DNA of 64,000 nucleotides from Fabrea salina. Taxonomy: Eukaryota > Ciliophora > Heterotrichea > Heterotrichida > Fabreidae. Below, piece by piece: positions 2,810 through 63,946 of this stretch. Numbering within the stretch: the stretch's first letter is position 1; each line of letters starts with the position of its first letter. The position numbers and the translations under genes were made by a program. The notes beneath the pieces are model-generated. The model saw only the letters and a program-made list of their open reading frames with translations. It did no database searches and was not told the DNA's origin. The DNA lies in the NCBI GenBank assembly GCA_022984795.1, contig JALIHJ010000019.1, positions 124,001-188,000 on the forward strand, read 5' to 3'.

Positions 2810-3265
2810 ATGGCTAAGATAGTTCAAAAAGGAGGGAAAATCCACATAGGAATAGGCAGCTATGCAAGCTTAACTAAGAGCTTCACCCAGCAAGAGATAC
2901 TTAAGTACTCAGAACTCTCAGGAGACTCAAACCCAATTCACTTTTCTAAAGAAGCTGCTAAAGAAAAAGGTTTTGAAGATGTAGTGGTTTTTGGAATGCT
3001 TTCTTCTTCACTGTTCAGTGGACTTCTTGGAAACAACTTCCCTCATTCTGTTTACCTTTCACAAACTCTTAACTTCCTAGCCCCTGTTTACGTCTTTGAA
3101 AACTTGCTAGCTAAAGTCCTCGTAACAGACGTCCAGCACTCTAAGTCTGGAAAGATCAAGTGTTTTTTAGACACCACACTTACCAAATCAAGTTTAGAAG
3201 TACTAGCAGTGGAGGGTAAGGCATTAATTCTTTTAGAACCCAACTCGGTTCAATTAAATTCTTAG
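2810..3265 (+). CDS. MaoC-like (R)-hydroxyacyl dehydratase / enoyl hydratase
   Basis: A 151-residue hot-dog-fold protein. SGDSNPIHFSKEAAKEKGF contains the MaoC/hydratase-2 signature with candidate catalytic Asp39 and His44. The family reversibly hydrates trans-2-enoyl thioesters. Single-domain eukaryotic members are usually mitochondrial type-2 fatty-acid synthesis dehydratases (HTD2-like) or peroxisomal hydratases. No clear targeting signal is seen, so the compartment is open. The start is placed at 2810 because it follows TAATAAA, the usual A/T-rich leader here. An upstream in-frame ATG at 2771 would overlap the preceding WD40 frame. Its TAG stop shares three bases with the DPH2 stop on the other strand. 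Confidence 0.85.
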   Translation: MAKIVQKGGKIHIGIGSYASLTKSFTQQEILKYSELSGDSNPIHFSKEAAKEKGFEDVVVFGMLSSSLFSGLLGNNFPHSVYLSQTLNFLAPVYVFENLLAKVLVTDVQHSKSGKIKCFLDTTLTKSSLEVLAVEGKALILLEPNSVQLNS

Positions 3266-29086: not shown

Positions 29087-30802
29087 ATGAATATGGACAT
29101 AGAAAGTCTTACAAGAGTGTGTTTGAGGAACATCCAAGAAATAGGCGGGAGACCCGTAGCCTTAGGAGGAGCACAAGGTAAGCCATAAGCAGCCCTGGAA
29201 CTACTAGAGAGACTCCAACAAGCTGAGAAATTAGAACAAGACTTCTATGCAAGTCAGAAACAGGAACCTTCCGAGGACACTGAACCACCAATTATCACAG
29301 TTCCATCCTTGCCCGCAAGGACTCCCTTGTTGAGGACCTCGGATAACCCTAAAGATATAATCTTTGATGCTTTTTTGGCCGACAGACCTATTCCCTCTCT
29401 CACTTGTGTTAGCCCAAATCGTTTGTCTTTGCTTTTAAAGGCCTTGGCGCTGTCTGGAGACGGACAGCCTCTGCTGGAAGAAGAAAAGGCCTTGGTGTCG
29501 CACTTCGTGCAGAAAAGCGACCTAGAAAGTCTTGAGAACTTCTTGTACCAGAAACTCATGCACGGGTACTTGCAAACTCCTCAGCTATACGAGGAACTAG
29601 TGAGTTACATCCTCAACACGATTTCAGATGTTTCTGTGGGTGAACAGATCATAAGGCGCCTTCCCCTGCTAACCCAGGACGTCTGGAGCTTCATCTGGAC
29701 AAACTCTACTGCACTTCTCGACTTAATTCGGGAGTTAGTCGTCACATCCGAAGAAGCCTCGCAGGGCCTACACCAGATCTTTAGTATGCTTGAAGACCCT
29801 GACCCAGAGATCCAGAAGCACGCTATTTCTCTGATCGCCAAGCAGTTATACACTGTGTGTTCCAACGAGATAGAAGCTAAGGCCCTAAACCACTTTGAAG
29901 TTATTTGGTAAGTTTTACTTAGTCAACAGCCCATTTACCCCCAGGGTTCAGAAGCTAAAATCAAGGTTTACTTCAAACTTTTGGCTAAAAACCCTGACTT
30001 GCTTCCGCATTTCATTACTTTTTTGCCTGAAATTGCTAACCCGCTTACAAGGCAAACAGTTCTGCAGCACTACTCTAAAGTGTTGCAAAAATCTTTTCCA
30101 CAAGACCACGCAGTTTTATTAGAATACTTAGACACCAACCCTGAAGAGACTTTTTCCAAAGAAACCCTGACCATCATTTCCCAGTTGCCCTCAATAAACC
30201 CCCAACTCAAGCAACTGCTCATTGAAAAAGCTAAGTCCAACGTGCAACTAATCACCTACGTTGCAGCTCACTTGAACATGCAAGAAATTGAAGAGGTCAT
30301 TCCTACGTTAGTTTCCCAGCCAGAGAGTTCTTTAAGTACTTACATGAGTTCGCTTTTGGAAGCTCCTGAAGTAGACCCTTCAGAAGTGCTTGCTAAGATT
30401 CTGAGCTTGGACTTAGCAACTCCTCAAGTCATCAAAGCGCTCAAAGTAGCTTTGGACCTCCGGCACGTTTACTACCAAGAAACGCTCCAAGCTGCTACAG
30501 AAAAAATAGTTAGACTTGAACCCATTCCAGAGACTTCTATGTATTTTATTTTGAAAGCTAACGAACTTTATCCACAGTTAAAGAGTTTCTTCATTAGTTA
30601 CGCTTTGCCTTATTTGCTGGAAAGGAAAGTATGGGAATACCCTAGGATTTGGAAAGGATTTGTGACCTTCATAGAAAGAACCACTCCTGACTCCATACAA
30701 GTCCTAGACCTCATGCCTCACGATGTACAGCAAAAACTTTTACAGAGGGAAACCATCCGCAAAGGGAAACTCGAAGAAACTATGAGAAAGCAAAAGTCTT
30801 AA
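29087..30802 (+). CDS. SYMPK: Symplekin/Pta1-like mRNA 3'-end processing scaffold
   Basis: Three exons with two 15-nt introns: GTAAGCCATAAGCAG (29178-29192) and GTAAGTTTTACTTAG (29908-29922). Their removal gives 561 codons in one frame. The C-terminal half, with AKNPDLLPHFITFLPEI, WEYPRIWKGFVTFIERT and PDSIQVLDLMPHDVQQKLL, matches the symplekin C-terminal domain. Symplekin scaffolds the cleavage/polyadenylation factor and histone-mRNA processing complexes. The protein is about half the animal length because the N-terminal HEAT domain that binds Ssu72 is missing or not recognisable. Given how close genes are here, 3'-end formation is of special interest. Confidence 0.85.
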
Positions 30803-45163: not shown

Positions 45164-46082
45164 ATGGAAGAAGTCTACCTTAAGGACTCGATAAAATGCA
45201 TGTCCATAGTGAGTTCAGAGTTCCTGCTGTACCCCATGTCCACAGTGATAACTAGAGTCCAGGCTAACCATATCAACGTTTCAGTTAACAAACGACTGCT
45301 TTCTTCTTACCACGGAGGAATGAGTATATTCTCAGTTGTGCCAGCTTTTATTTTCCGCTTGAAGTTCACAGACGTAGTTGAACCTACTCTTAAAGAGAAA
45401 TGTAAGTACTTACTTAGACAAGTTCTCAGAAGCCTCTACTTTTTTCGCAGTTTCTTGTATAGCTGACGGGCTAACTTGCTTCTTAAGGTGCCCCACAGAG
45501 CACTGGAGGCAGCAGTTCCAGTCAGGCAACTACACATCTGGAAAAGCCCTTATGAACGACATTGTGGGGTACACTGGTCCTCTGGGGTTCTGGAGAGGCA
45601 TGGGTGTTTTCTTTTTAAGAGACACAGTGTTCAACGTAATTAGGTTTGGACTTTTCAACCACCTCCAAAACAACTACAGACAGAACCCTGAGTACAAAAG
45701 ACTTAACAGACGCAGGTACCAAGAAGAACTAAACGAGTCACCGGAACGACAAAGGAACAAAAAAGTATTTGAAGAAATGAGAACACTGACTTGGATTAAC
45801 GTGTTGTCTACAATCCCTGCAGCAATCATCACTACTCCTCTTGACGTAGTTAAAACAAGACTCATGACACACCCCCTTTACGAACCCATGGGTGCTATGG
45901 AGCACTTCAGAAAGATCCTGAACGAAGAAGGTTTTTCAGCCCTTTTCAGAGGTGCAGGAGTTAGAGCACTTTATGTGTGTTCACTTATTTCAGTGTTTAT
46001 GTCACTTGACTTTTTCTTGTCGTACCCACTTGAAAAGGCCAAAACTATGCAGATTGATACACGCAATGAACTCTTTAAATAG
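45164..46082 (+). CDS. Mitochondrial carrier family (SLC25-like) protein
   Basis: Two exons joined by a 16-nt intron GTAAGTACTTACTTAG (45402-45417), giving exactly 300 residues, the usual carrier length. The threefold signature is visible as LLYPMSTVITRVQ (degenerate), LRCPTEHWRQQFQ and TTPLDVVKTRLM, each at the end of an odd helix, with EGFSALFRGAGVRALY closing the third repeat. Carriers exchange metabolites across the mitochondrial inner membrane; the substrate cannot be told. The N-terminal repeat departs from PxDxxK, so transport may be atypical. It ends two bases from the stop of the convergent NEK gene. Confidence 0.88.
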
Positions 46083-50877: not shown

Positions 50878-51975
50878 ATGGAAAGTACACAAACTATATG
50901 TTTTGATGCAGACTGGACCCTTGTTAAGTACAAGTTAAAAGAATTCCTCCAGTTGTGCTACCAAGATATGGTTACAAAACTAGTCCACAAAGGCTACGAC
51001 AGTGCAATTCTCCAGCACCCCTCTTCTGAGTATCCAGAGAACTATGTTGTGTCTGGACTGGTTGCTGACCTTCAAACAGGGTTCTTACTTAAGCTTGACA
51101 AGAACTATCGAGTGCTAAAGGCCTACCAAGGCTTTGAAGAAGTTTCTGAAAAAACTCTGCAAGAAACATACGGAATTCCTTCTGTGTTTGAACTAAGCAA
51201 CCCACAGAACATCTATGTGAAAGGGGCTTACTTTGTTTTTGTGGCCAATTTCTGCTTAGGACTGCAACTAGCTTTTAGAGTAGGCGTGCAAAGGATAAAA
51301 GAAGGGGCTTTACACACAAGTTATGCTAGTTACATGCAGGAAGCCTTAGAAGTGTTTGCAACTATACTGGAAGACCAAAACTGCGGGTTCTACAGAGAAG
51401 TAGTAGCTAAGCCAGCAAACTACGTAATACAACAACCAGAGTTAGTTCCGCTTCTGAGAAACTTAAAAAGCTCAGGCAAAAAGTTAGGAGTGATTACTAA
51501 TTCCCCTGGACTCTACGCAAAGGTGATACTTAAGCAAACACTAGGAGAGGACTGGGAAGAGTTGTTTGACTTTGTAGTAGTTGACTCTTGCAAGCCCAGT
51601 TTCTTTTTGGAAACTCCTGAGTTCTGTGAAAGCGAAGGGTTTCTGCAGTATGGAAACTGGGAAAGTCTGCAACTCCAAAAAGAACTAGGAAGCACTATGT
51701 ACGTAGGAGACCACTATCTAGGGGACATTTATGCTCCTAAACTTAAAGGATTGAAAGTAACTGGAATCTTTGAAGAAGTTTACAGAGAACTAGGCTTGCA
51801 AGGAGTAGTCAGCAAGGAACTAACTAGCAATACAGGAGCTGAGTACGAAACTGAGTGGGGTTCTATTATAGGCCCCCATGGGGAGGGGCTGTGGTGGAAC
51901 TGGGTTGCTAGGTACTCAGACTTAGTTTCAACAAGTGTTAAAGACCTCTTAAGTTATTTAACTAGTGCTTCTTAA
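50878..51975 (+). CDS. HAD-superfamily 5'-nucleotidase (NT5DC-like)
   Basis: A 365-residue protein with motif I FDADWTLVKY (Asp nucleophile in DxDxT), motif II in LGVITNSPG and the acidic motif in GSTMYVGDHYLGDIYAPK. The arrangement matches the cytosolic purine 5'-nucleotidase/NT5DC family, which removes phosphate from nucleoside monophosphates; NT5DC members have poorly known substrates. Its last 14 bases overlap the end of the gene on the other strand (51962-51975). Confidence 0.85.
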   Translation: MESTQTICFDADWTLVKYKLKEFLQLCYQDMVTKLVHKGYDSAILQHPSSEYPENYVVSGLVADLQTGFLLKLDKNYRVLKAYQGFEEVSEKTLQETYGIPSVFELSNPQNIYVKGAYFVFVANFCLGLQLAFRVGVQRIKEGALHTSYASYMQEALEVFATILEDQNCGFYREVVAKPANYVIQQPELVPLLRNLKSSGKKLGVITNSPGLYAKVILKQTLGEDWEELFDFVVVDSCKPSFFLETPEFCESEGFLQYGNWESLQLQKELGSTMYVGDHYLGDIYAPKLKGLKVTGIFEEVYRELGLQGVVSKELTSNTGAEYETEWGSIIGPHGEGLWWNWVARYSDLVSTSVKDLLSYLTSAS

Positions 51976-53742: not shown

Positions 53743-55497
53743 TTAAAGTCTTTCTTGAGGCTTGACGCCCAAGAGTTCAAATATCTTCTTCATAGTTAAC
53801 TTGGTGCTAACACACAGTTGGATTCTGGAGTCTTGCTGTTCACTCCCGATAACTTTGCAGTGGTTATAAAACTCACTGAACTTCACGCTTATTTCGTAAA
53901 TTAAGTCGCAGAGTTTATGCAGAGCCAGTTCGTCAATCACGGTTTCAATGACATCTGGGAATCTAGAAATAAACAAGGCTAGAGACTTTTCTTGAGTAGT
54001 TGTAATCACACACTGGGCTCCAAGTGCAGTTGCAACAGCTTCTTCTCCAGCTTTGTCTAAAATAGAGCAAATTCTTGCGTAGGCGTACAACAAGTAAACT
54101 GCTGTGTTGCCTCTGGGGTCCAGCATCTTCTCAAATTCAAACTTGTAACTTGAGTTCCTGTTTTGCCTTAAGTCGTAATACTTAATGGCTGCAATTCCAA
54201 TATCTTCAGCTGCCTGTTCAAAAGTTTCGGGCTGTAAGTAAGTTTGCTGGCCCATTCCTGGTTCTTCTGACCTTTGAGTAAGTCTGTCCTTTGCCCTGGT
54301 TTTGGCTTCGTTAAGTAAGTCTATGAGTTTGACACTTTCGCCTTCCCTTGTTTTGAACTTTTTCCCATCAGGTCCCAAAACCACTCCAAACCCTGCGTGG
54401 TCCATCCTCGTTTCAGGAGGTAAGTGCCACCCTGCTGCTTGGGCTGCTTCGAAAATAGAGTAGAAGTGGTTTGCTTGGCCGTTGTCAGTCACGTATATAA
54501 CTCTCTTAACGTCAATTTCTTGTAGTCTGTACCTAGCAGCTGCAAGGTCTGTTGAGTCGTACCCGTAGCCTCCGTCTTTTTTGCGCATCATAAGAGGGAC
54601 TTCGCATACTTTAACAGACAAGCACAAAGCACCTTCGCTTTCTTCGACAAGTCCTTTTTCTGAGAGTTCCTTAGTTACGCTTTCAAGCATAGGGTTGTAA
54701 AAGCTTTCGCCGTAGTCTTCGAGTTCTATTTCTAGTCTGTCGTAAATGATTTGGAGGTACTCACGAGACACCTTGTAGATGTAGCGCCAGGCTTTCATAG
54801 CTTGTTCTTCTCCTGACTGCAACTCAACTACTTTGAGTCTGGACCTTTCTTTAAAGTCGCTGTCTTCGTCAAACCTTTTTTTGGCTGCTTTGTAAAAAGT
54901 TTCTAAGTTAGAAATGTCTGGAGAAGTAGTTTCCCAGTCAGGGTAGGTGTCCATCAAGTAAGTTAAAAGCATTCCAAACTGTGTTCCCCAGTCGCCTAAG
55001 TGGTTTACTCGCATCACAGGGAACCCTAGAAATTCCAAGCACCTGCAAATGGAGTCACCTATGATGGTTGAACGCAAGTGACCTACGTGCATTTCTTTGG
55101 CAATGTTGGGACTAGAAAAGTCCACTAAGGTCTTCACACGCGGAATGTCTAAGTCCAAAACAACTTGTCCTTCCCGGCACACTTGTGTAATGTTGCTTCC
55201 TAGCCACTCTTCACTTACGAAAAAGTTCAAAAACCCGTTGTTAGCTACTTCGACTTTGGAAAGGACTCTAGGCAGTTCTAAGTTCTCGTGTATCTTGTCT
55301 GCAAGGGCTTTGGGGTTGGCGAACCCGAAAGCCCCTGACTTTTTGTGCTTATTGAAGATAGTCAGAGCAATCGGAGATATAAAGTCTGTGTTGAATTTAG
55401 CAGCGGCAGGGGTAACTACAAGGGCTTCTTCAACAGAAACGACTTGCTTAAGGGCTTTTCCTAGAGCTTCTTTGAGTTCGCGAACCACAGACAGCAT
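53743..55497 (-). CDS. RARS1: Arginyl-tRNA synthetase
   Basis: A 584-residue class I synthetase. The N-terminal Add-1-like domain ends near 100. VDFSSPNIAKEMHVGHLRST contains the HIGH motif as HVGH (137-140), followed by VNHLGDWGTQFGMLLTYL, YDSTDLAAARYRL and the KMSKS-equivalent GKKFKTREGESVKL. The anticodon domain is present at the end. It charges tRNA-Arg. It starts directly with no long leader or targeting peptide, so probably cytosolic. Its ATG is only 4 nt from the ATG of the divergent phosphatase gene. Confidence 0.96.
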   Translation of the reverse strand: MLSVVRELKEALGKALKQVVSVEEALVVTPAAAKFNTDFISPIALTIFNKHKKSGAFGFANPKALADKIHENLELPRVLSKVEVANNGFLNFFVSEEWLGSNITQVCREGQVVLDLDIPRVKTLVDFSSPNIAKEMHVGHLRSTIIGDSICRCLEFLGFPVMRVNHLGDWGTQFGMLLTYLMDTYPDWETTSPDISNLETFYKAAKKRFDEDSDFKERSRLKVVELQSGEEQAMKAWRYIYKVSREYLQIIYDRLEIELEDYGESFYNPMLESVTKELSEKGLVEESEGALCLSVKVCEVPLMMRKKDGGYGYDSTDLAAARYRLQEIDVKRVIYVTDNGQANHFYSIFEAAQAAGWHLPPETRMDHAGFGVVLGPDGKKFKTREGESVKLIDLLNEAKTRAKDRLTQRSEEPGMGQQTYLQPETFEQAAEDIGIAAIKYYDLRQNRNSSYKFEFEKMLDPRGNTAVYLLYAYARICSILDKAGEEAVATALGAQCVITTTQEKSLALFISRFPDVIETVIDELALHKLCDLIYEISVKFSEFYNHCKVIGSEQQDSRIQLCVSTKLTMKKIFELLGVKPQERL

Positions 55498-55501
55498 TAA
55501 T

Positions 55502-56002
55502 ATGGCTTATTTTTTAAGGAAAAATTCTAGGGTTTGCAAAACAGTTGCTCAGCTCAAAAATCAGGACTCTAGACCTCAGAAAGTAAAGTTTACTTAGATT
55601 CTGGAGGGTCTCTACTTAGGTTCTGCTGCTGCTGCTTGTTCAAAAAGAACTTTACACTACTTAGGGGTTACCCATGTTCTAACGGTTTGCGATTCTTTAG
55701 AACCGGAGTTTCCAAGTGACTTTGTTTACAAAGTCATAAAGATCCCAGATGACCCTAGTTACAACATTTTAAACTGCTTAGAAGAAGGCTTGGAGTTTAT
55801 CCAAAAAGGCCTTAAAGAAGGCTCGGTTTTAGTTCACTGTCTTTGTGGAGTCAGTAGGTCTGCTTCATTCGTAATTGCTTATTTGATGAAAACCCAAGCA
55901 ATGAGCTTATCCTACGCACTTAGATTCTTAAGACAAAGAAGACCCCTTTCAAACCCCAACGAAGGGTTCCTTGCACAACTAGCCCTTCTTGAGAATAATT
56001 AA
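55502..56002 (+). CDS. Dual-specificity phosphatase with 15-nt intron
   Basis: A 161-residue atypical dual-specificity phosphatase after removal of GTAAAGTTTACTTAG (55583-55597), which contains an in-frame stop. The splice gives RPQKILEGLYLGSAAAACSK, the usual entry to this fold. The active site is VHCLCGVSRSAS (Cys108, Arg114), followed by YLMKTQAMSLSYAL and RPLSNPNEGF, the usual ending. Substrates unknown. The start ATG 55502 lies 4 nt from the ArgRS start. The next gene starts 2 nt after its stop. Confidence 0.93.
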
Positions 56003-56004
56003 TT

Positions 56005-56541
56005 ATGGACAAACCTAGTGCTCTTGTAGAGAAAGGCTGGGAAAGCATAGGGTACTCAAGGTACTCTTTTGGAGACACCCAAGTTCTGGCAAGTGCCTAC
56101 GGACCTTACGAGTCCAAAGCTGTAGTAAAGTCTAGCTTTGAAAAGTGCTTAGTAGAAGTAGTTATTTCAGACGTGTTCTTTTCCACAGACACTTCCACAG
56201 AAGAAGCTCAACTAAAAAACCTTTTCAGCTCACTTGTGGATTCTAAAAAGTACCCTTACTTGTGTGTGACCATTAACATACAAATAATTTCTAGAGGAGA
56301 TCAACTCATTGCTAGTTGCATTAACGCAGGCTTTTTGGCTTTGAAGCACGCATGCATAGACTTAAGGCACGACGCTTTTGCTATGGAGTTCAAGGAAAAA
56401 ACCTTTGAGTGCCTGTTAGCCCTTGTACCCCACACAGACTTGATTCTGCTGAGTGTAGTTAAAGGCTTGATGACAATCCAGGACTACAAAGCTTGTGTGC
56501 AACAAGTTTACGCCAAAACACAGGAGTTGTTTACTTACTAA
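56005..56541 (+). CDS. EXOSC5: Exosome core subunit of the RNase PH family (Rrp46-like)
   Basis: A 178-residue RNase PH fold: GYSRYSFGDTQVLASAYGPY, then YPYLCVTINIQIISRGDQLI and ASCINAGFLALKHACIDLRH. The order and short length fit Rrp46/EXOSC5, one of the six-ring subunits of the RNA exosome, which is catalytically inactive in eukaryotes. The exosome trims and degrades RNA in nucleus and cytoplasm. The start lies 2 nt after the preceding TAA. Confidence 0.85.
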   Translation: MDKPSALVEKGWESIGYSRYSFGDTQVLASAYGPYESKAVVKSSFEKCLVEVVISDVFFSTDTSTEEAQLKNLFSSLVDSKKYPYLCVTINIQIISRGDQLIASCINAGFLALKHACIDLRHDAFAMEFKEKTFECLLALVPHTDLILLSVVKGLMTIQDYKACVQQVYAKTQELFTY

Positions 56542-60240: not shown

Positions 60241-61495
60241 TTAACTAAGGTGCTGATTAATTATCCAGGGACTCTTGCCTTCATAGGAGTTGCCAGGGAT
60301 TTTGAAGGGAATTTTAGAAATGACTTCGTTTTTAGTAGCTGAAGAGTCAGTTTCTGGCATAAACACCACTCCTAACTCGTAGTTTGCTATGAAGAGTTGA
60401 GAGCACTGTTTTTCGAACTTGCCCCAAGCTGCCATAGAAAGGTTGTGGCTTCCTATGTAAATTAAAGTATCGTCAGTGTACTCGTAGTTGTTGTGGGCCA
60501 CTATTACTTTGCTGTGGGACAAGTGGTTGCAGATTTGAGGAAAGGCTTCTGGAGCTGCTAAGTCTCTGAAACTCTCCCTGGGGAACTTTGAAGCATTGTA
60601 GTGACTTTCCTTCAAAAAGGTCGTACCTCCTCCTTCTAGTCCTAAATGGGAGTTTCTGACTGTTTCTACTGAAGGAAATATTATTTCAAAGTTTGCGTCT
60701 TGGTTGTTTGCAAAGCTCAAACAGTACTCTTTTTGCATGCTAGGGTTGATATTGCCTATACTTGAGCACTGCAAAGTAAGGTTGTTGAAGCTTTTGTTGG
60801 AGTTTTGAAGGAGGTTTCTCAAACGGCCTTGTCCGTACTTAACAGTGTTTTTATGCCTTCCTGGGACCGAACTGACCAACTGGACTTTTGCTTGGGAGTA
60901 GTCATAACGTTCCAGGTTAATTCCTAGTTCTTCTGCTAAGTTGTAGTTGTCTGGCAAAATGCTACTCACAAACTCACTAAGCTCTTGGTAGAACTCCGCC
61001 TGAAGCAACTCCTATTGGAAAGTCCTGGAACCAAACTACTTGGCCTATGCTGTTCCAGTCATAACTTACAAGGTTCGCACTCATCACAACTACTCTTAGG
61101 GTGTTGGGGAACTTAATCAGGCAGAGTTTAGCGTGGAACTTGCCCCAGCTTTCTTGGACACTTGGAGACACTAACGTAAAGTGGTCAAATACCCTTTTGA
61201 GTGCTTTTCTGTTTGAGTGGCAAACTAAACAAGTTTTAATGCCTTTTTGAATAAGTGGAGCAATAAAGGTCTCTTCAAAGCAAAAAGTAGTTAGTAAAGT
61301 AGACTCTACTGTAAGGGAAGACTTTAAGTCTTCCAAAAAAAGCTGTTTAAAAGCTAGCATGTGGGAAGGTGGGTTCTCCACAAACGAAAGCTTAGTAATG
61401 TATATGCTTGAAGATTCAAATTCCCTTCCATTTAACTTTTTCTTTTTGGTAGGTTGGGTGTGTTGGTGCATTTTCCTTTTAGCGGGAGTTTCCAT
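60241..61495 (-). CDS. TDP1: Tyrosyl-DNA phosphodiesterase 1
   Basis: Two frames join into 412 codons if 16 nt at 61009-60994 (GTTGCTTCAG GCGGAG) are removed. The N-terminus is basic (AKRKMHQHTQPTKKKKL). HKD motif 1 is GKFHAKLCLI (His121, Lys123) followed by MSANLVSYDWNSIGQVVWFQ. HKD motif 2 is HSKVIVAHNN with GSHNLSMAAWGKFEKQ. TDP1 frees topoisomerase I stuck to DNA 3' ends. The 16-nt segment starts GTTGC and lacks the usual A near its 3' end, so it may be a frameshift rather than an intron. Its ATG follows the TAA of the upstream kinase gene with no base between. Confidence 0.88.
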
Positions 61496-63946
61496 TTAAC
61501 TAATTACAACCTTTTCAAGTAAGTCAACTATGCTAGAAAAAGAAGGTCTTTTGTCTGGAGCAGTCCTCCAACACATGCCCATTACTTTTAGAAGCCGTTT
61601 GGGACAGTCACAGGGCACTAAGTCTGTGTTGGGTCTTTGGTGGTTATGGAGTACTCTGTGCTTGATTTCTGAGTGGGACAGTCCGCTGTAAGGAATTTCT
61701 CTTGTAATCACTTCGTACATCACTATTGCAAAAGAAAACACGTCTGCCTTAAAGGTGTACTCGCTTCCACTCAGTACTTCAGGGGCCATCCAGTGGCAAG
61801 TACCTACTTGGTTAGTCATGAACTCAGGGTTCTTCAAAACCCGACTAAGACCGAAATCTGCGATCTTAAGAGTTATGGGGTCAGTTGGGTTCAGTATTGG
61901 ACAGCACAGCAGTATGTTTAAGGACTTTAGGTCTCGGTGAAGGTACTCTTTGGAGTGCAGAAAGTGCATTCCCTTTGCTACTTCTTGGAGTATTTTGAGT
62001 TTTTGAGCCCAGCACAGAGTTACTGAGTCTTGTTTGTGGAGCAGGTGGAAAAGGTCTCCTCCTTCACAAAACTCAGTAACTATTGTAAGTGGAGTTCCTA
62101 AGTACGCGCCTAAAAACAGAACTAAGTTGGGGTGGCGCAGTTTGATGAGGACACTGACTTCTCTGCCGAACTCTTTGTAGTTTTGGGAACCTGAGTTGTA
62201 GAGTTGTTTAATAGCAACTTGGGTTTTTTTAAGGGTGCCCAACCAGACTTCACAAGAGCTTCCTCTTCCGATTCTTTTAGTGAAGCAAAGTTGGTCTAAG
62301 CTTATTTCCCAGTTTCTAAGTGACTTGTTGATGTGCCTTGAAAACCTAGTGAGGGTTTCAGTTTTAAGGTCCACCAAACTGAAGTCTGAGGACTCACTGG
62401 GCTCCTTTGCAGAGTTACTTTGGTCAATCAGTAAGGTGCAAAACAACTCAGGGGGTTCTTGTGGAACTTCAGAGTTGTCTATTTCAAAAAGTGACTTAGC
62501 TTGGTAGTAGCACCTTACGTACTCAGGCTTGTTGGTGTGCATCAAGGAGTTCAGCAAGTTGATTAAGTTTACCTGCTCACTTACAAGGCTCATCCGCAAG
62601 TTCTTTCTGGTTTGTTCTAGGTAGCCTTCACTCACTAGCAAGCAGTGGGTTTTCAACAGTTTGTCCCAGTAACTAAGTAGTTCTTCTGTTAGGCTTTCAG
62701 CTGAATCGCTGGTGTATTTAAAGAACTTAAAGTCGTTCAAGCTAAGTTTTCCGTTAACAACTCCAATGTGGTTTTTTACTACAAAGAACTTTTCTTTAAT
62801 GACTGAACAAAAAGAGTTGGTTATAGCTTTGAAGTGTTGGTTTTTCAAGGGGTGTTTAGGCTTTACAAAGCACTGAGAGTCTATGTACTCCAGAAGAGTT
62901 TCAAACTCCTCTGCAGCTTCGTAAGCCAGTAAAGGAGCTTCTCTTAAGTAAACAAACAGCAACAAACAAGCATTCAGTCTAGTTTTGGGGTGGCTTAGTC
63001 CTATTAACTTTGTCATTTCCTGAAAGAACTTTTTGATTTTGTAAGGTTTGTTTTCAGACTTTTCAATGAGTTTCTTAAGTTGTACTGACTGTTTAGTGTT
63101 TACAACATACTTGTGAATCAGCTTAGCTGTGGACCTTCTTGACTTAAAACGCAGAAAAACCAGAGTTCTGGGAATACAGAACAAAGAGTCCAGAATGAAC
63201 TTAGACTTTTCTTCGTAGAGTTTGCTAAGCACTCCGTTTATTTCAGTTCTCAAAAAAGGGTTAGGGCGAAGCATCATGTTCAGGAGTTCTTTGACTCTGG
63301 CAGAAACTCCTTCTTGGAGTTTCCATTTTCCTTCGCACTGGCACTTAGTGCTTTCAAAGGGAAAAACGCCAAACAAACTGTAGTAAAAAACCATTCCTAA
63401 GTTCCAAATGTCCATTTTGGTGCTAGGAATGCTGTGGGCTTGTGGGCTGATTAACTCTGGCGGCCTCCACCTTTCGTTGGTTAAACTCTCAACTTCTTGG
63501 AAACTCGAGTACTGCTTAGCTGAGTGTTCAAGTCCGGATATCTGCATTGAGTCTTGGCTGTAAAAAATGTTTTCGGGATTAAGGTTTCTGTGTAGAACAG
63601 GAACCTGTTGCGAATGCATGTGTTTGAGTCCCAGTGCTAGTTGGTAAAGGGCTTTGAAGGGGTCTCTAGGCAGTGACCGTGCCAAGGACCTGTAACAGTA
63701 CTCGTACAAAATCACTATTCTTTCTTGGGTTTGTTCTTTGCCTTTGAGTGAAATTATATTAGGGTGGGGATTTAGTTCTGCAAGAAGGTTTACTTCGTTG
63801 TTGGCTTGTCTAACTTGCAAAGGAGTTGGGTTTGGAATGATTTTGGCCAGATAATAAGTTTCGCTTTCGTGCACAAAGTACAAGTCCTTAGAAACTTTGT
63901 GGCTGATTTCCAACTCTTTGTTTTGCATAGTTAATTTTCCTTCCAT
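61496..63946 (-). CDS. Tandem pseudokinase plus TKL kinase
   Basis: An 816-residue protein with two kinase folds. The first (about 18-260) resembles the NAK/AAK1 group but is degenerate: LHRNLNPENIF replaces HRDLKxxN and SGLEH stands where DFG should be, so it is probably inactive. A helical middle (about 265-530) recalls ANTH/VHS-type solenoids but is not identified. The second (about 550-810) is intact and TKL-like: GRGSSCEVWLG, VAIKQLY, LHRDLKSLNILL, IADFGLSRVL, GTCHWMAPEVLSG and RPSFSSIVDLLE. The plan recalls JAK, where a pseudokinase controls a neighbouring kinase. Start ATG 63946 follows an A/T leader. Confidence 0.9.
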   Translation of the reverse strand: MEGKLTMQNKELEISHKVSKDLYFVHESETYYLAKIIPNPTPLQVRQANNEVNLLAELNPHPNIISLKGKEQTQERIVILYEYCYRSLARSLPRDPFKALYQLALGLKHMHSQQVPVLHRNLNPENIFYSQDSMQISGLEHSAKQYSSFQEVESLTNERWRPPELISPQAHSIPSTKMDIWNLGMVFYYSLFGVFPFESTKCQCEGKWKLQEGVSARVKELLNMMLRPNPFLRTEINGVLSKLYEEKSKFILDSLFCIPRTLVFLRFKSRRSTAKLIHKYVVNTKQSVQLKKLIEKSENKPYKIKKFFQEMTKLIGLSHPKTRLNACLLLFVYLREAPLLAYEAAEEFETLLEYIDSQCFVKPKHPLKNQHFKAITNSFCSVIKEKFFVVKNHIGVVNGKLSLNDFKFFKYTSDSAESLTEELLSYWDKLLKTHCLLVSEGYLEQTRKNLRMSLVSEQVNLINLLNSLMHTNKPEYVRCYYQAKSLFEIDNSEVPQEPPELFCTLLIDQSNSAKEPSESSDFSLVDLKTETLTRFSRHINKSLRNWEISLDQLCFTKRIGRGSSCEVWLGTLKKTQVAIKQLYNSGSQNYKEFGREVSVLIKLRHPNLVLFLGAYLGTPLTIVTEFCEGGDLFHLLHKQDSVTLCWAQKLKILQEVAKGMHFLHSKEYLHRDLKSLNILLCCPILNPTDPITLKIADFGLSRVLKNPEFMTNQVGTCHWMAPEVLSGSEYTFKADVFSFAIVMYEVITREIPYSGLSHSEIKHRVLHNHQRPNTDLVPCDCPKRLLKVMGMCWRTAPDKRPSFSSIVDLLEKVVIS

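What the first reader, a model, noticed from the sequence alone, without database searches (positions are those of the whole stretch)
55495..55504. Two divergent start codons only 4 nt apart
The ArgRS ATG (55497-55495) and the phosphatase ATG (55502-55504) are separated by TAAT, so the ten bases CATTAATATG hold both starts. Both proteins are clear family members and need these starts, or starts a few codons away. The two 5' leaders must be nearly absent or must overlap the other gene, and core promoter elements must lie inside coding sequence. This is among the tightest divergent arrangements I can think of in a cellular eukaryote.
Basis: partly seen in the sequence, partly recalled or inferred. 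Interest (0 to 1): 0.75.

Follow-up and report, generated by a model that had tools for sequence, protein, structure and literature searches.

The report
Back-to-back genes sharing ten bases
Two neighbouring genes of a ciliate with a very compact genome really do start only four bases apart on opposite strands, but several other gene pairs nearby are packed almost as tightly, so it looks like a habit of this genome and not an isolated oddity.

Summary
The ArgRS start (55497-55495, minus) and the phosphatase start (55502-55504, plus) flank TAAT. Both starts are supported. ArgRS has an in-frame stop four codons upstream, and its first Met is shared with close relatives. The phosphatase frame holds a TAG at 55595-55597, which a 15-nt intron (55583-55597, GTAAAGTTTACTTAG) explains: removing it gives the spacing seen in the nearest homologues.

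The rarity claim fails for this genome. In a 184-kb sample I found eight further divergent pairs with 4, 5, 5, 5, 8, 9, 10 and 15 nt between starts; seven have a Pfam family above cut-off on at least one side. Three of the eight lie in the same window. The spacers are nearly all A/T, and first ATGs of long ORFs are preceded by 84% A/T at -5 to -1, against 58% for internal ATGs.

Best reading: a streamlined heterotrich ciliate macronuclear genome (probably Fabrea salina, inferred) with very short leaders, where the A/T-rich start context may double as an initiator usable on both strands. Transcription start sites were not measured. Comparable compaction is described in Giardia, microsporidia and nucleomorphs. 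Interest is modest: the class of pairs could test how little DNA a eukaryotic divergent promoter needs.

The parts
53743..55497 (-). Arginyl-tRNA synthetase, 584 aa, one open frame; ATG at 55497-55495, TAA at 53745-53743
   Evidence: Pfam Arg_tRNA_synt_N, tRNA-synt_1d, DALR_1; start shared with relatives; TAA four codons upstream
55498..55501 (.). TAAT spacer between the two start codons
55502..55582 (+). Dual-specificity phosphatase exon 1 (27 codons, MAYFLRK...DSRPQK)
   Evidence: QL(R/K)xxDSRP stretch also in homologues P0001, P0002 and P0006
55583..55597 (+). Predicted 15-nt spliceosomal intron GTAAAGTTTACTTAG containing the in-frame TAG
   Evidence: GT[AG]A-N-TACTTAG occurs 8 times at length 15 (this one included) against 0-3 at each other length from 12 to 30 in 184 kb, both strands; homologue spacing
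55598..56002 (+). Phosphatase exon 2, DSPc domain, stop TAA 56000-56002
   Evidence: Pfam DSPc E 3.1e-28
55486..55501 (+). Context upstream of the phosphatase ATG: the last six bases (ATTAAT) are A/T only; 55486-55497 are ArgRS codons 1-4 read antisense
55498..55515 (-). Context upstream of the ArgRS ATG (AAAAAATAAGCCATATTA): the last six bases (ATATTA) are A/T only; 55502-55515 lie in phosphatase codons 1-5
56005..56541 (+). Next gene, RNase PH family; its ATG is 2 nt after the phosphatase stop

Best explanation
This is a real head-to-head gene pair in the macronuclear genome of a heterotrich ciliate, compacted until only TAAT separates the two start codons. Shown: sequence, starts, intron-aware gene models, and the frequency of similar pairs in 184 kb. 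Inferred: the A/T-rich stretch of about 4-10 nt just before most start codons marks the site of transcription initiation and acts like an A/T-rich initiator. Because such a block need not have polarity, one short block can serve both strands, so each mRNA has a leader of a few nucleotides or starts a few codons inside the neighbour, antisense to it. Any further promoter or nucleosome signals would then lie in the first codons of the two genes.
For: Starts. Context: with no choice of start at all (first ATG of 91 ORFs of at least 200 aa) A/T is 84.4% at -5 to -1, 74.1% at -10 to -6, 68.5% at -20 to -11, 66.7% at -30 to -21, 61.5% at -60 to -31 and 58.3% at -100 to -61, against 57.6% at -5 to -1 of 872 internal in-frame ATGs. 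Context-chosen starts give 88.8% (91 ORFs), and the 63 of these with a context score above 2 give 93.7% (circular). Similar pairs: spacers TTATA (right gene uridine kinase family), AATAA (right gene large RNA polymerase subunit), AAAAA (right gene phosphoribosyltransferase family), TTTATAGT (kinase and FYRN protein), AATTATATAA (Mpo1-like and EF-hand).
Against: No transcript 5' end, RNA-seq or chromatin data were available. Upstream-ATG counts give only weak support for leaders under about 20 nt. Counting all frames they are 2 against 6.8 expected at -10 to -1, 7 against 10.7 at -20 to -11, 14 against 9.8 at -30 to -21, but also 3 against 9.7 at -40 to -31 (97 genes); in-frame upstream ATGs are biased by the ORF definition. 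Out of frame only, 2 against 4.8, 5 against 8.0, 9 against 5.2 and 2 against 6.8, numbers too small to decide. The A/T context may be a translation signal only. Counts of pairs rest on a simple ORF caller. The second 4-nt pair depends on a context-chosen start for its right gene.
Confidence: 0.65

Rival explanations
1. The A/T block before the ATG is a translation-start context only. Transcription starts upstream, inside the neighbour's coding sequence, so both mRNAs have leaders of tens of nucleotides that overlap antisense.
For: A/T richness peaks right at the ATG. The phosphatase has no ATG on its sense strand for 300 nt upstream, so a long antisense leader would carry no upstream start. 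Upstream ATGs are also low at -40 to -31 in one of two gene sets.
Against: No upstream-ATG depletion at -30 to -21 (14 against 9.8). About 3 ATGs would be expected by chance in 300 nt, so their absence upstream of the phosphatase is weak evidence; ArgRS has its nearest upstream ATG at -178.
Confidence: 0.28
2. One start is misannotated: the phosphatase starts further upstream inside ArgRS (55190, 55145 or 55103), so the two coding sequences overlap head to head.
For: The phosphatase frame is open back to a TGA at 55079.
Against: It would add over 100 residues; homologues P0001 and P0002 have 26 residues before DSRP, against 21 here. P0006 does have a longer N-terminus, but it is an unnamed metagenomic prediction. 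I did not score the context of those three ATGs.
Confidence: 0.04
3. The phosphatase is a broken gene (TAG at 55595), so the pair is not functional on the plus side.
For: The TAG is in frame.
Against: The TAG lies in a consensus 15-nt intron; Blepharisma introns are mostly 15-16 bp (PMC9942806, passages) and the median in Stentor is 15 bp (PMC10946202, passages). Spliced spacing matches the nearest homologues. P0006 has a 5-residue insert at the same place, as an unspliced 15-nt intron would give (its DNA was not seen).
Confidence: 0.03

Closest known systems
Giardia A/T-rich initiator and bidirectional initiation (TSS-seq, PMC3792122, passages seen)
   Same: Very short leaders, A/T-rich consensus containing the start site, and in some cases initiation in both directions from one nucleotide between adjacent genes
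   Different: Measured there, only inferred here. The same paper suggests that much of what was called bidirectional may be separate one-way starts. Unrelated lineage
Encephalitozoon cuniculi head-to-head genes (PMC2803860, passages seen)
   Same: Leaders under 7 nt by RACE and a motif just upstream of the ATG; a 35-bp head-to-head ribosomal protein pair
   Different: Motif is CCC-like, not A/T; the quoted spacer is longer; parasite. That paper says overlapping head-to-head CDSs are very rare after start correction
Spironucleus salmonicida (PMC3916229, passages seen)
   Same: Run of As before the start codon, compact genome
   Different: Also TATA-like and C-rich motifs upstream; mean intergenic distance 421 bp
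Heterotrich macronuclear genomes (Blepharisma stoltei, PMC9942806, passages seen; Fabrea salina, MBE 2022, only its title seen in reference lists)
   Same: Gene-dense, short intergenic and untranslated regions, 15-16 bp introns (Blepharisma)
   Different: I could not read the Fabrea paper or compare gene order in a named relative
Nucleomorph genomes (PMC8887012, passages seen)
   Same: Very little intergenic space, occasional gene overlap
   Different: Endosymbiont remnant nucleus, highly A/T-rich chromosomes, clear upstream nucleosome-free region

Membership tests
Divergent gene pair | Two real protein genes on opposite strands with adjacent 5' ends | tested here: met
   (by coding sequence; transcripts not seen)
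Bidirectional promoter | Both genes transcribed from one shared region | not testable with these tools
   no transcript data
Short-leader A/T initiator system (Giardia-like) | A/T-rich element at the start codon of most genes | tested here: met
   84.4% A/T at -5 to -1 for unchosen first ATGs of 91 ORFs against 57.6% for 872 internal ATGs
Short-leader A/T initiator system (Giardia-like) | Transcription starts inside the A/T element | not testable with these tools
   only weak upstream-ATG counts
Heterotrich ciliate macronuclear genome | 15-16 nt introns | tested here: met
   TACTTAG-ended candidates peak at 15 nt, 8 against 0-3 at other lengths; splicing itself not seen
Heterotrich ciliate macronuclear genome | Closest named relative is a heterotrich | tested here: met
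   ArgRS best named hit Blepharisma stoltei, 67%, among the 120 listed of 7993. The phosphatase is not informative: its named hits are mixed, with Stentor at 37%
Fabrea salina | Species identity | tested here: inconclusive
   assembly of 18.33 Mb fits a recalled size of about 18.35 Mb; no named sequence compared

The most novel reading that the evidence does not exclude
In this free-living ciliate the divergent core promoter has shrunk to a 4-10 bp A/T-only block, so that ten base pairs (CATTAATATG) hold two translation starts and two transcription starts, with all other promoter information in codons. Four A/T bases may be the floor, because each start context needs about that much.
Probability: 0.28. 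Interest if true: 0.6.

Novelty: new member of a known kind. Interest (0 to 1): 0.35.

Why it matters
If the inferred initiation sites are right, pairs like this show how little DNA a eukaryotic RNA polymerase II needs between two divergent genes, in a free-living cell and not only in parasites or nucleomorphs. The eight further pairs found in 1% of the genome make it testable as a class.

Tried and rejected
Rejected: TAG read as glutamine. Of 45 ORFs of at least 150 aa kept in the window, 35 end in TAA, 9 in TAG and 1 in TGA, so TAG works as a stop, and a 15-nt intron explains the case. Rejected: a codon-score gene caller with a 25-bit cut-off, which kept only 85 genes and lost many small ones; the ORF-based list was used instead, where 15 of 30 divergent neighbour pairs have gaps of 42 nt or less. 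One of these 15 (gap -2) looks spurious. The ArgRS pair and the 5-nt phosphoribosyltransferase pair are not among the 15: the caller missed the phosphatase and chose another start for the other. A gap of 13 nt (C14:197419/197433) was left out of the eight because its left start was chosen by context and neither protein was run against Pfam. Two hits with gaps of 0 and 1 nt lie within 30 bases of an end of a fetched stretch (C14:104027, C2:100026) and could not be judged, so a floor of 4 nt is not shown. A raw count of CAT-N-ATG is confounded by codon phase and was not used alone. In the raw list of 15-nt GT-AG stretches that mend a frame (35 candidates) most do not match the intron consensus. 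A scan of viral contigs with the ArgRS alignment found no relative. A whole-genome count of CATWWWWATG was wanted but did not complete.

Full report
Observation. The ten bases CATTAATATG lie at 55495-55504 as described. The 13-mer around them occurs once in the 18,328,466-base, 103-contig assembly that holds the window.

Gene models. ArgRS (53743-55497, minus) has its three Pfam domains, the N-terminal one starting at residue 7. The in-frame codons upstream of its ATG are TTA, ATA, GCC, then the stop TAA, so no other ATG start is possible without an upstream exon. In an alignment with 17 close relatives, 12 begin exactly at the same Met, 3 have an upstream extension with a Met at that column, and 2 begin ten residues later (I aligned 17 of the 120 hits listed). 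A cytoplasmic ArgRS of known structure (4q2t; human, recalled) aligns from query residue 1.

The phosphatase frame from 55502 is interrupted by TAG at 55595-55597. The DSPc domain begins four residues later. The bases 55583-55597 are GTAAAGTTTACTTAG. In the 184-kb sample, GT[AG]A-N-TACTTAG occurs 8 times at length 15 (this one included) and 0-3 times at each other length from 12 to 30. Removing it gives DSRP-QKILE-GLYLGS; P0001 and P0002 also have five residues between DSRP and GLYLGS. P0006 has five extra residues (VRPTQ) at that point, which fits an unspliced 15-nt intron beginning GT and ending AG; its DNA was not seen. Of the eight homologues in the alignment, six have no insertion there; P0006 and P0099 (one residue) do. 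The only ATG of this frame between the ArgRS start and the domain is 55502; further in-frame ATGs lie at 55190, 55145 and 55103 inside ArgRS.

How common is it? With ORFs of at least 100 aa in 184 kb (window plus L002-L013, 1% of the assembly), 15 of 30 divergent neighbour pairs have gaps of 42 nt or less, one of them spurious. A direct scan, the pair listing and Pfam give eight tight pairs besides the finding: C14:120308/120314, TTATA, right gene uridine kinase family with its domain from residue 6; C2:125383/125389, AATAA, right gene a large RNA polymerase subunit with its domain from residue 8, left gene without a Pfam hit; C14:113663/113669, AAAAA, right gene of the phosphoribosyltransferase family; window 63946/63955, TTTATAGT, kinase and FYRN-domain protein; window 22468/22478, ATTATTAAA, left gene Alba-like but below the Pfam cut-off; window 34387/34398, AATTATATAA, Mpo1-like and EF-hand, left start chosen by context; C14:192647/192652, AAAA, left gene of the isocitrate dehydrogenase family, right start chosen by context; C1:121436/121452, 15 nt, left gene a PPIase. 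Seven of the eight have a Pfam match above cut-off on at least one side, two on both sides (the 8- and 10-nt pairs). In the three 5-nt pairs an in-frame stop lies within nine codons upstream of both starts. So tight divergent starts are a habit of this genome.

Start context. For the first ATG of 91 ORFs of at least 200 aa, with no choice of start, A/T is 84.4% at -5 to -1 and 74.1% at -10 to -6, falling to 58.3% at -100 to -61; for 872 internal in-frame ATGs it is 57.6% at -5 to -1. A context-scored subset of 63 gives 94%, which is circular. At the finding both starts have six A/T bases directly upstream (ATTAAT and ATATTA). CAT-W(4-11)-ATG occurs 23 times against 3.8 on average in 20 shuffles, but only 7 of the 23 have long ORFs on both sides. 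Upstream ATGs are fewer than expected within 20 nt of the start and not at -30 to -21, but are low again at -40 to -31 in the context-chosen set; out-of-frame counts show the same with small numbers. This fits short leaders but does not prove them.

Organism. ArgRS is nearest to Blepharisma stoltei among named hits listed (67%); a near-identical unnamed entry, P0121, differs visibly at one residue. PMC10553269 passages say that Fabrea and Stentor use the canonical code, which fits TAA, TAG and TGA acting as stops here.

Mechanism. The A/T block may act as an initiator usable on both strands. This is by analogy with Giardia, where TSS-seq found initiation in both directions from the same nucleotide between some adjacent genes (PMC3792122, passages). 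The same paper warns that such cases may often be nearby one-way initiators, which could equally hold here.

Literature limits. Of the titles and abstracts listed by the searches (capped lists), I saw none that maps transcript starts in a heterotrich. That is a statement about those lists only.

Noticed in passing
window 61493-61498: Two minus-strand genes abut with no base between: the stop TAA of the 816-aa kinase gene (61498-61496) is followed directly by the ATG of the next ORF (61495-61493). Other same-strand gaps in the window are 1-11 nt, e.g. 25226/25228, 59134/59140.
   Followed up: partly
window 3262-3265 and 51962-51975: Convergent ORFs whose 3' ends overlap by 4 and 14 nt.
   Followed up: no
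window 29908-29922 and 45402-45417, plus strand: Further stretches like the tiny intron: GTAAGTTTTACTTAG (15 nt) and GTAAGTACTTACTTAG (16 nt); both mend an open frame.
   Followed up: partly
window, 45 ORFs of at least 150 aa: TGA is almost never used as a stop: 35 TAA, 9 TAG, 1 TGA.
   Followed up: no
184-kb sample: Strong trinucleotide skew: AGT 9838 against GAT 2841 and ATG 3877, both strands counted.
   Followed up: no
window 1-64000: ARAGORN finds no tRNA gene in the window.
   Followed up: no
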